Positions 38,479 to 40,614 of a stretch of 64,000 nucleotides of DNA are shown here, in pieces. Origin of the DNA: a virus. Where the stretch lies: the IMG/VR virus record IMGVR_UViG_3300044946_000048, positions 24,620 through 88,619 of that record; one strand, written 5' to 3'. The notes under the pieces were generated by a model. That model worked only from the letters and a program-made list of their open reading frames with translations, was not told the origin of the DNA and made no database searches. The position numbers and the translations under genes are program-made. Each line of letters opens with the position of its first letter. Positions within the stretch are counted from its first letter, which is position 1.

Positions 38479-39032
38479 GTGGATTTTACTTTTGGTTGTA
38501 CAGTTTAATCGAGCCTCTTTACTTGTGGCTTGAGAGTCAGACAGAAGCAGCACAACGTGCAGCACAACGTGCAGCCGAGCGCAAGGCAGTACTCCTAGAT
38601 GCAGAACAGCGACTGACCGCAGTTCGTATGCGCCGCCTGATGGGAACGCAGCCTTTAGGATCATGGCCGAACATATTTGAGAAACCCTGCAAACACTTAA
38701 AGGGTGGACGATACAGACTGCCGGGGCACAAAGATTATGCTACGTGGTGTTTTACTTTTGTTGATGGTTCGACGATAATTAAGTGTGCGATTTGTGGAGA
38801 GAAATGGACACCACAGAGTCCGGATTGGGCCGACGCAATAAAAATGATGGAGCAATCAACGAACACACGCTGTTCTTCAGAAGTGATTTACAGCAAACTA
38901 TTATATTCGGATGGGAAGACTAGAACACCCGAAGAGGCAAAGGCCGAAGGACTCGCTACCTCCTATTCGGAGCAAGAAGAAAAGAACGCAAAAATAGTTG
39001 TTGACAAAGAAGCCGAGAAAGCGGTAGAATGA
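38475..39032 (+). CDS. Hypothetical protein with zinc-like centre
   Basis: 185 residues. Ala/Glu-rich helical N-terminus with a repeated AAQRAAQRAAE pattern, then KPCKHLKGGRYRLPGHKDYA and IKCAICGEKW (Cys/His cluster). The last bases contain the -35 box of the Y-RNA promoter. Confidence 0.6.
   Translation: MSGFYFWLYSLIEPLYLWLESQTEAAQRAAQRAAERKAVLLDAEQRLTAVRMRRLMGTQPLGSWPNIFEKPCKHLKGGRYRLPGHKDYATWCFTFVDGSTIIKCAICGEKWTPQSPDWADAIKMMEQSTNTRCSSEVIYSKLLYSDGKTRTPEEAKAEGLATSYSEQEEKNAKIVVDKEAEKAVE
39001..39030 (+). promoter_or_regulatory. Promoter of the Y-RNA/Ro60 locus
   Basis: TTGACA (39001-39006), 18-base spacer, TAGAAT (39025-39030). The predicted start, about 39037, falls at the first base pair of the Ya stem. 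Confidence 0.8.
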
Positions 39033-39037
39033 TTTTA

Positions 39038-39108
39038 GTGCGGATGCCGTAGGCCAAGGTTACTTCTACGATAAAGGAAAAACACCTTGTCCGTTTGTTG
39101 CCCCGCAC
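39038..39108 (+). ncRNA. Y-RNA-like RNA, simple type (Ya)
   Basis: 71 nt. Outer stem GTGCGG/CCGCAC (39038-39043 with 39103-39108); internal loop with TGCCGTAG opposite TTTGTTGCC; second helix GGCCAAGGT/ACCTTGTCC with one mismatch (39052-39060 with 39084-39092), a form recalling the Ro60-binding helix; then TTACTTCT in the apical loop. Y RNAs are the RNA partners of Ro60, and bacterial ones are commonly encoded beside it. Its promoter ends just upstream. Confidence 0.75.
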
Positions 39109-39130
39109 ACAAGTTTAGATGTAAAAGTTT

Positions 39131-39264
39131 GACGAGTACCGTAGATTGGGGTTACTTCTGACTACGAATCAGATAGTGTAGGTTCGAATCCTGCGGCTCA
39201 TCCTCATGATGAGTCTAGTGTAATGGTAGCACATCCCGTTACTTCAATCGCTTGTCGTCTCGTC
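39131..39264 (+). ncRNA. Y-RNA-like RNA with permuted tRNA-like domain (Yb)
   Basis: 134 nt. Outer stem GACGAG/CTCGTC (39131-39136, 39259-39264); motif TACCGTAG opposite CTTGTCG; helix GATTG/CAATC, then GGG/CCC with a 7-nt bulge. Inside: a hairpin TCTGA/TCAGA; a T-arm GTAGG-TTCGAAT-CCTGC (39178-39194); an acceptor-like 8-bp stem GGCTCATC/GATGAGTC closed by a 5-nt loop (39195-39215); a D-arm GTGT-AATGGTA-GCAC (39218-39232). T-arm comes before D-arm, so it is a circularly permuted tRNA shape, as described for bacterial YrlA RNAs. Confidence 0.8.
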
Positions 39265-39285
39265 AATTAGCTCATGAGGATGAAC

Positions 39286-40614
39286 ATGAAGTTAAACAAA
39301 GCCACGCAGTTTGCACTAACGAAGTTTACTCACGAAGGCGCACCAGCCTATCGACACACGAATGCAGCCCAGGACCTGAGCCGTTCCGTAATGGCCTGCA
39401 TGTTATGGGAAAATACGTTCTACGAGTCCGGAGAGGAAATTGCTACACGCATCCAGAATCTCGTAAAAGCGGTCGATCCGGAAGTCGTTTCTGCCATCGC
39501 CATCGAAGCGCGTGAAAAGATGAACCTGCGTCATGTTCCTTTGCTATTGGTAACTGCGATGGCGAAGCTGCCGACACACCGTCACGCCGTGGCCGAAACG
39601 GCTGCACGTGTTATTCAGCGTGCGGACGAACTGGCAGAAGTGCTTGCCATTTACACGAAGGGCCGCACGGGAACCAAGAAGTTGAACAAGCTTTCAAACC
39701 AGCTTAAGAAGGGCGTGGCTACCGCGTTCACAAAGTTCAACGAGTACAGCCTGGCGAAGTATAACCAGGACAACGAAATCAAGCTGCGTGACGTTTTGTT
39801 CGCAGTGCACCCTCGTCCGTTGAACGACGAACAGGGCGCAGTGTGGAAGCGCCTGGCTCAGAATGAACTTGCTACGCCAGACACTTGGGAAGTTGCGCTG
39901 TCAGCAACCAAGGACAAGAGAGCGGAGTGGACTCGTCTGTTGACCGAAGAGAAACTCGGCGCACTTGCTTTGCTTCGTAACTTGCGTAATATGCAACAGG
40001 CAGGAGTGGACGAGAAATTGGTTCGCTCTGCATTGGCGGCGATGAAGACAGAACGTGTCCTACCGTTTCGCTTCGTCGGCGCAGCCAACCATGCTCCGCA
40101 GTGGGAGCCAGAGTTGGAAGCTGCAATGTTGAAGAACCTTGCAGAAATGCCGAAGTTGCCGGGCAAGACGGCTATCGTTGTGGATAATTCCGGGTCGATG
40201 TCGGACAGAATTTCTGGAAAGTCAGAACTGTCTCGCATCGATGCAGCTTGCGCACTTGCAATTTTGGTGCGTGAAGTCTGCGAACGAGCCGTCGTGATTG
40301 GTTTCGGTTCAACCGCAGCCGTGATTCCGGCCCGCAAGGGATTCGCTTTGCGTGATGCTATCAAGCGAGGCCCGGGCGGTGGTACGAACACAGACACAGC
40401 GTTGGCGCTCGCAAGGCAGCAAGGCTATGATCGTATCATTGTAATCACGGACGAACAGTCTCACCAGCGTATCTCTGGCCCGTTGTCCAGAGCAAAGGGC
40501 TACTTCATCAACGTTGCGTCAAACAAGAACGGCATCGGTTACGGTGCGTGGACTCACTTGGACGGATGGTCAGAAGCTATTCTCCAGTACATTCAAGCAA
40601 TCGAACAGGTATAA
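39286..40614 (+). CDS. rsr: Ro60 ortholog (TROVE and vWA domains)
   Basis: 442 residues from ATG 39286 (GAGGA upstream). The N-terminal two thirds are the helical TROVE ring (LNKATQFALTKFTHEG, RSVMACMLWENTFYESGEEI, HVPLLLVTAMAKLP); the rest is a von Willebrand A domain with MIDAS residues DNSGSMS near 300, GGTNTDTAL and ITDEQS. Ro60 binds misfolded RNA ends in its ring and Y RNA on its outside; in bacteria the Y RNA can tether it to PNPase. Two Y-RNA-like genes lie directly upstream. Phage copies are known but uncommon. Confidence 0.95.
   Translation: MKLNKATQFALTKFTHEGAPAYRHTNAAQDLSRSVMACMLWENTFYESGEEIATRIQNLVKAVDPEVVSAIAIEAREKMNLRHVPLLLVTAMAKLPTHRHAVAETAARVIQRADELAEVLAIYTKGRTGTKKLNKLSNQLKKGVATAFTKFNEYSLAKYNQDNEIKLRDVLFAVHPRPLNDEQGAVWKRLAQNELATPDTWEVALSATKDKRAEWTRLLTEEKLGALALLRNLRNMQQAGVDEKLVRSALAAMKTERVLPFRFVGAANHAPQWEPELEAAMLKNLAEMPKLPGKTAIVVDNSGSMSDRISGKSELSRIDAACALAILVREVCERAVVIGFGSTAAVIPARKGFALRDAIKRGPGGGTNTDTALALARQQGYDRIIVITDEQSHQRISGPLSRAKGYFINVASNKNGIGYGAWTHLDGWSEAILQYIQAIEQV

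What the first reader, a model, noticed from the sequence alone, without database searches (positions are those of the whole stretch)
39001..40614. Promoter, two Y RNAs and Ro60 as a compact operon
TTGACA-18-TAGAAT ends seven bases before the first pair of Ya. No other gene intervenes before Ro60. The Yb 3' stem ends 21 bases before the Ro60 ATG, so either the Y RNAs are the leader of the Ro60 mRNA or are cut from it.
Basis: seen in the sequence. Interest (0 to 1): 0.7.

Follow-up and report, generated by a model that had tools for sequence, protein, structure and literature searches.

The report
Phage Ro60 with tRNA-mimicking Y RNAs
A tRNA-rich phage carries a gene for the RNA-binding protein Ro60 directly behind two small Y RNAs, one of which folds like a whole transfer RNA with its ends shuffled and its anticodon arm kept; the same design recurs in many phages, and its role in infection is unknown but testable.

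Summary
A TTGACA-18-TAGAAT promoter (11/12), two Y RNAs (Ya 39037-39108, Yb 39129-39266) and Ro60 (start most likely ATG 39286) follow each other with no gene between. Relatives conserve the order. Three corrections. (1) The "compact operon" has no visible end: no terminator was found between the Y RNAs and Ro60 or just after it, and the next ORF can start one base after the Ro60 stop. (2) The phage has four Y RNAs; two more (3415-3507 and 3269-3407, minus strand) sit in its tRNA array. (3) RNase P would be expected to cut at the acceptor loop inside Yb, not between Yb and Ro60. The main new point: Yb is not an ordinary YrlA. Beyond the T, acceptor and D arms it has a perfect anticodon arm (CUACGAA, Arg-ACG type), so it is a complete, circularly permuted tRNA cloverleaf on a Ro60-binding stem. 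Among unselected viral relatives with room for the arm, 22 of 43 have a perfect 5-bp arm (about 3-4% expected), with U33 and the normal 36-37 rule, but varied anticodons. Best reading: a new variant of the known Ro60-Y RNA system, a full uncharged-tRNA mimic held by Ro60. A decoy role against anticodon nucleases is open.

The parts
39001..39030 (+). sigma70-type promoter TTGACA-18-TAGAAT
   Evidence: placement before the first Y RNA recurs in relatives
39037..39108 (+). Ya: short Y RNA (YrlB-like, no tRNA domain)
   Evidence: R1 35.7 bits; weak Rfam YrlB match 39032-39114, 19.6 bits, gathering 97
39129..39266 (+). Yb: YrlA-like Y RNA carrying a complete permuted tRNA cloverleaf
   Evidence: Fold z -3.4; R1 85.2 bits, training sequence; weak Rfam YrlA match, 17.1 bits, gathering 69
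39129..39136 (+). Yb basal Ro60-type stem, 5' strand (pairs with 39259-39266)
   Evidence: basal helix covaries in alignment A2
39157..39173 (+). Yb anticodon arm UCUGA-CUACGAA-UCAGA (ACG in positions 34-36)
   Evidence: Rfam tRNA match 39141-39194 above gathering score; ARAGORN reads the rotated sequence as tRNA-Arg(acg)
39178..39194 (+). Yb T arm GUAGG-UUCGAAU-CCUGC
39195..39215 (+). Yb acceptor stem closed at the apex (39195-39201 pairs with 39209-39215), no CCA end
39218..39232 (+). Yb D arm GUGU-AAUGGUA-GCAC
39276..39279 (+). Ro60 Shine-Dalgarno GAGG; 39272-39283 is a perfect 12-nt complement of 39198-39209 in the Yb acceptor apex
   Evidence: 0 of 1000 shuffles reach 12 nt; function untested
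39286..40614 (+). Ro60 / TROVE protein (442 aa); the longest ORF opens at 39274
   Evidence: Pfam TROVE 65.7 bits, VWA_2; phrog_850; PDB TROVE chain E 2.8e-26
3415..3507 (-). Yc: third Y RNA, inside the tRNA array
   Evidence: R1 35.0 bits end to end; fold z -3.1; motif GGTGCCGTTAG...TTACTTC...CGCCTGTTGCC
3269..3407 (-). Yd: fourth Y RNA, inside the tRNA array, with a T arm and a long extra arm
   Evidence: R1 29.8 bits end to end; fold z -4.2; ARAGORN's odd tRNA-??? 3297-3366 lies in it

Best explanation
This is a phage-borne Ro60-Y RNA system. Transcription probably starts near 39037 and yields one RNA: Ya, Yb, Ro60 and likely the genes beyond. Ro60 made from it binds the paired ends of Ya and Yb, so the Y RNAs accumulate as stable Ro60 particles, either trimmed from the leader by host RNases or bound while still on the mRNA. 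Yb presents a complete tRNA-shaped surface (acceptor, D, T and anticodon arms) whose acceptor end is sealed, so as encoded it cannot be charged. The likely role is to bring tRNA-recognising partners to Ro60, or to keep them off real tRNAs, during infection by a phage that brings about 28 tRNA genes of its own. Shown by sequence: order of parts, folds, anticodon arm, recurrence in relatives. Inferred: transcription, processing, Ro60 binding, function.
For: Parts and order. Conserved promoter placement. 18 close and 80 further viral Ro60 loci fetched, 435 matched; in a CM scan of 75 of them, 63 had Y RNAs in a run before Ro60, usually 1-3, usually close to the gene. Anticodon arm: among unselected tRNA-like cores, those with 23-25 nt between the Ro60-type TACTTC motif and the T stem have a perfect 5-bp arm in 22 of 43 and at least 4 bp in 37 of 43; those with 19-22 nt have 0 of 16 perfect. 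Shuffles of the same stretch give about 3-4% (33 observed against 3.3 expected of 97; four of the 97 were pattern-selected). In 23 perfect arms, U33 occurs in 22 and a purine at 37 in 23. In arms of at least 4 bp, U36 goes with A37 in 25 of 25, G36 with G37 in 8 of 8, C36 with A37 in 4 of 4, as in real tRNAs. The other helices covary strongly.
Against: No expression or binding data. Rfam YrlA and YrlB scores are well below gathering. ARAGORN on rotated sequences discriminates poorly: 43 of 53 real against 611 of 1060 with shuffled arm and variable loop, so it is only illustrative. The covariation alignment A2 was chosen mostly from sequences with at least 4 pairs in the arm, so its counts for that helix are biased. 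The partner protein is unknown; in Deinococcus it is PNPase (PMC8394870, PMC7790460).
Confidence: 0.72

Rival explanations
1. Decoy: Yb and its kin imitate the anticodon arm to absorb or inhibit host anticodon nucleases, with Ro60 keeping the decoy stable.
For: Canonical anticodon loops with varied anticodons; sealed acceptor ends with UUCG, GCAA, GAAA loops common. For Salmonella YrlA, competitive inhibition of an anticodon nuclease was proposed as a possibility (PMC7790460).
Against: Salmonella YrlA was not cut by the nuclease, and the idea was not tested. Close relatives differ in anticodon (CcrPW UAG, CcrColossus CUG), which a nuclease-specific decoy might not tolerate.
Confidence: 0.2
2. 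Permuted tRNA gene: RNase P and 3' processing open the acceptor loop and a working tRNA with a Ro60 stem between positions 26 and 27 is made.
For: Rotating at the acceptor loop gives tRNA calls, in the window tRNA-Arg(acg). A few relatives encode N-CCA after the acceptor strand, for example CcrPW with a 34-nt loop (8 of 67 cores, not all of them Y RNAs).
Against: Most acceptor ends are short stable loops without CCA; the window's is CCUCAUG. The phage already has a normal tRNA-Arg(acg) at 3680-3754.
Confidence: 0.07
3. Autogenous control: the Y RNAs act mainly as a 5' leader through which Ro60 level is set, by Ro60 binding Yb near the start site or by the Yb acceptor apex pairing with the Shine-Dalgarno.
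For: 12-nt perfect complement 39198-39209 / 39272-39283, 0 of 1000 shuffles; SD predicted in a hairpin loop with the ATG in the stem. Terminators between the Y RNAs and Ro60 in 11 of 97 relatives.
Against: Relatives with UUCG or GNRA acceptor loops are not expected to form this pairing; part of the complement is the palindrome TCATGA; not tested with compensatory changes.
Confidence: 0.2
4. Evolutionary remnant: the anticodon arm is inherited from a captured tRNA and has no role of its own.
For: Arms grade from 5 bp to none; some relatives replace the arm by short hairpins, for example L135 UCAUUCGGAUGA.
Against: Canonical U33 and 36-37 coupling kept across diverse phages, and a canonical loop also on a Rhodococcus plasmid; not a recent copy of the phage's own tRNA-Arg (42 of 70 matching bases; Gly-tcc 51).
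Confidence: 0.2

Closest known systems
YrlA (Rfam RF02553), bacterial Y RNA with tRNA-like domain
   Same: Ro60-type stem from paired ends; T arm, closed acceptor stem and D arm in the same permuted order
   Different: Yb adds a full anticodon arm between the Ro60 stem and the T arm; the Rfam model has none there, and related RNAs need an insertion at that place to fit it. Score 17.1, gathering 69. PMC8394870 describes the YrlA domain as D, T and acceptor arms.
YrlB (Rfam RF02565)
   Same: Ya matches the whole model end to end, short Y RNA next to a YrlA-like one
   Different: 19.6 bits against a gathering score of 97; sequence largely different
rsr-yrlBA-rtcBA operon of Salmonella (PMC7790460)
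   Same: Ro60 homologue clustered with a YrlB and a YrlA RNA
   Different: Here the RNAs precede the protein gene, the promoter is sigma70-type, and no rtcB/rtcA was seen among the ORFs inspected next to Ro60
Phage Ro60 / TROVE proteins (jumbo phages, PMC7824862; Listeria phage CKA15 with abundant small RNAs upstream, PMC12282133)
   Same: Phage-borne Ro60, small RNAs on the same strand upstream
   Different: Those papers, in the passages read, do not describe a permuted tRNA with anticodon arm
Circularly permuted tRNA genes
   Same: 3' half precedes 5' half
   Different: Break lies between D arm and anticodon arm and holds a Ro60-binding stem; no encoded CCA in the window

Membership tests
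Ro60 / Rsr (TROVE) protein | TROVE domain above Pfam cut-off | tested here: met
   PF05731 65.7 bits, cut-off 23; phrog_850 E 2e-57
Ro60 / Rsr (TROVE) protein | vWA domain with MIDAS residues | tested here: met
   VWA_2 34.2 bits, cut-off 27; D304, S306, S308 and T392, D393 invariant in 19 relatives; the Ro60-specific vWA model is below cut-off (24.4, 27.7)
Ro60 / Rsr (TROVE) protein | Binds Y RNA | not testable with these tools
   Needs pull-down or binding assay
YrlA | Stem of paired 5' and 3' ends | tested here: met
YrlA | T arm, closed acceptor stem and D arm, in this order | tested here: met
YrlA | Rfam gathering score | tested here: not met
   17.1 bits, gathering 69
YrlA | No anticodon arm between stem and T arm (as in the Rfam consensus) | tested here: not met
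   5-bp, 7-nt arm at 39157-39173; recurs in relatives
YrlB (for Ya) | Rfam gathering score | tested here: not met
   19.6 bits, gathering 97, full-length match
Functional tRNA (permuted gene) | Cloverleaf with anticodon arm | tested here: met
Functional tRNA (permuted gene) | Free or releasable acceptor end with CCA | tested here: not met
   Acceptor closed by CCUCAUG, no encoded CCA; release by RNase P untested

The most novel reading that the evidence does not exclude
Phages carry Y RNAs that are complete uncharged-tRNA mimics with freely varying but rule-abiding anticodons, held by phage Ro60 as decoys or baits for host tRNA-cutting or tRNA-sensing defence.
Probability: 0.2. Interest if true: 0.82.

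Novelty: new variant of a known kind. Interest (0 to 1): 0.6.

Why it matters
Why phages carry Ro60 is an open question. A Y RNA that keeps a canonical anticodon loop while its acceptor end is sealed gives a concrete lead: something that reads tRNA anticodon arms is likely involved. Cultured phages with such RNAs (CcrPW, CcrColossus, Xanthomonas phage Olaya, Brevundimonas phage Gurke) make it testable. The arms also mislead tRNA annotation.

Tried and rejected
Distant-DNA search of phage records for the locus: no match. Rfam at gathering thresholds names only tRNA here, not YrlA or YrlB. Rotated-sequence ARAGORN as a statistical test: rejected, shuffled controls often pass. R1 scores alone for remote Y RNAs: not sufficient, since real tRNAs in the array reach 31-32 bits; Yc and Yd also need the flanking motifs and folds. 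Yb as a recent copy of the phage's tRNA-Arg(acg): rejected (42 of 70 bases). A terminator between Yb and Ro60 or just after Ro60 in the window: none found. An early note that the Microcystis phage tRNA-Leu before Ro60 is a Y RNA was withdrawn: its sequence reads as a normal tRNA ending in CCA. Genome-wide searches among cellular relatives could not be run for a virus record. The key papers on YrlA (PMC4201824, PMC6281776, PMC6047535) are not held, so novelty of the anticodon arm could not be checked against them.

Full report
WHAT WAS CHECKED. The window is 64,000 bases of an 88,619-base virus record (positions 24620-88619). TTGACA-18-TAGAAT has 11 of 12 consensus matches and ends at 39030, on the stop codon of the preceding ORF (38475-39032). 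Sites that good occur 8 times on both strands of the window, so the match alone is not proof. Its position adds weight: in 63 related loci, a site of at least 9/12 directly before the first Y RNA occurs in 13, against 3.1% at random positions, and of at least 10/12 in 8, against 0.5%.

THE PROTEIN. The ORF to 40614 is a TROVE protein (Pfam 65.7 bits, cut-off 23) with a vWA domain, and it matches phrog_850 and solved TROVE chains. The start is most likely ATG 39286, behind GAGG at 39276-39279; relatives begin M-K-x-N or M-x-x-N. The next ORF on the same strand can start at GTG 40616, one base after the Ro60 stop, and no terminator-like site was found just after Ro60. The unit therefore probably continues into the glycosyltransferase-like and sugar-gene cluster.

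THE Y RNAS. Ya (39037-39108) was not used to build model R1 and matches it end to end at 35.7 bits. Yb (39129-39266) is the best match (85.2 bits), but it is one of the 29 training sequences. Two more RNAs of this kind lie on the minus strand inside the tRNA array: Yc 3415-3507 (35.0 bits, fold z -3.1) and Yd 3269-3407 (29.8 bits, fold z -4.2). Real tRNAs in the array reach similar scores, so Yc and Yd rest on the flanking motifs (GTGCCGT..AG, TACTTC, and TGTTGCC) together with score and fold. ARAGORN's unnamed tRNA at 3297-3366 lies within Yd.

THE ANTICODON ARM. Known YrlA RNAs imitate the D, T and acceptor arms of tRNA (PMC8394870). Yb has these in the usual permuted order, T arm 39178-39194, acceptor 39195-39215, D arm 39218-39232, and in addition a hairpin UCUGA-CUACGAA-UCAGA at 39157-39173, separated from the T arm by a four-base variable loop. 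This is a normal anticodon arm of Arg-ACG type. The stretch 39141-39194 passes Rfam's tRNA gathering score. Rotated at the acceptor loop, ARAGORN reads it as tRNA-Arg(acg); this rotation test is weak in general (43 of 53 real against 611 of 1060 shuffled).

IS THE ARM MORE THAN CHANCE. In Ro60 loci from viral contigs, phage records and three genome contigs, 97 non-redundant tRNA-like cores beside a Ro60-type motif were scored; 33 had a perfect arm against 3.3 expected from shuffles. That set includes four loci found by a pattern that demands the arm and some background. With those loci removed, cores with 23-25 nt before the T stem have a perfect arm in 22 of 43 and at least 4 bp in 37 of 43; cores with 19-22 nt have none of 16 perfect. 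U33 is present in 22 of 23 perfect arms and a purine at 37 in all 23. Among arms of at least 4 bp with U33, base 37 follows base 36 as in real tRNAs: U36-A37 25 of 25, G36-G37 8 of 8, C36-A37 4 of 4; this last count includes the four pattern-selected loci. Anticodons vary (GUU, GCU, CGU, GUG, CUC and others), even between the close relatives CcrPW and CcrColossus (UAG and CUG). The same kind of arm (CUGUUAA) is on a Rhodococcus plasmid whose Ro60 is only 30% identical. Alignment A2 shows strong covariation in all long helices; for the anticodon helix this is biased by selection.

HOW IT LIKELY WORKS. One transcript starts near 39037 and carries Ya, Yb and Ro60. Ro60 binds the paired ends of the Y RNAs and stabilises them. 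Relatives differ in how the RNAs are separated from the mRNA: 11 of 97 have an intrinsic terminator before Ro60 (control 5 of 570); none was found in the window, so cleavage or binding in place is needed. RNase P normally cuts 5' of an acceptor stem, here the apical loop, so it would open Yb rather than release it (inference from known RNase P specificity). Many acceptor ends in the family are short loops such as UUCG, GCAA or GAAA, without CCA, so charging is unlikely as encoded. The most economical view is that Yb offers a complete uncharged-tRNA shape to a partner. Whether that partner is a nuclease, a modifying enzyme or PNPase is unknown. A proposal that YrlA could competitively inhibit an anticodon nuclease exists for Salmonella (PMC7790460), and it was not tested there.

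A LOCAL ODDITY. The Yb acceptor apex (39198-39209) is a perfect 12-nt complement of the Ro60 start region (39272-39283); no shuffle of 1000 reached 12. It may allow control of Ro60 translation, but relatives with tetraloops are not expected to have it, and part of it is a palindrome.

LIMITS. No transcript, binding or processing data were available. The host is unknown. The main YrlA papers were not held, so the claim that the anticodon arm is new is tentative. Cellular genomes could not be surveyed with R1.

Noticed in passing
window 3269-3507 (minus strand): Two further Y RNAs (Yc, Yd) between tRNA-Thr(tgt) and tRNA-Asn(gtt) in the phage tRNA array; ARAGORN's unnamed tRNA 3297-3366 is part of Yd.
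   Followed up: partly
window 39198-39209 and 39272-39283: Perfect 12-nt complement between the Yb acceptor apex and the Ro60 Shine-Dalgarno region; 0 of 1000 shuffles reach it.
   Followed up: partly
L022 1661-1728; L025 2302-2376: Annotated tRNA-Gln (CcrColossus) and tRNA-Ser (Brevundimonas phage Gurke) upstream of Ro60 coincide with Y RNAs whose anticodon loops read CUG and GCU; likely misannotations.
   Followed up: partly
L021 1658-1823 (CcrPW), also L089 1685-1827: Some tRNA-like Y RNAs encode N-CCA after the acceptor strand, CcrPW with a 34-nt acceptor loop, so these might be processed like permuted tRNAs.
   Followed up: no
L137 3729-3869: Rhodococcus rhodochrous plasmid carries a Y RNA with a GUU anticodon arm before a TROVE gene.
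   Followed up: no
window 894-5531 (minus strand): Array of about 28 tRNA genes.
   Followed up: no
window 40616-52609: Long same-strand run of glycosyltransferase-like and sugar-modifying genes starting one base after the Ro60 stop.
   Followed up: no
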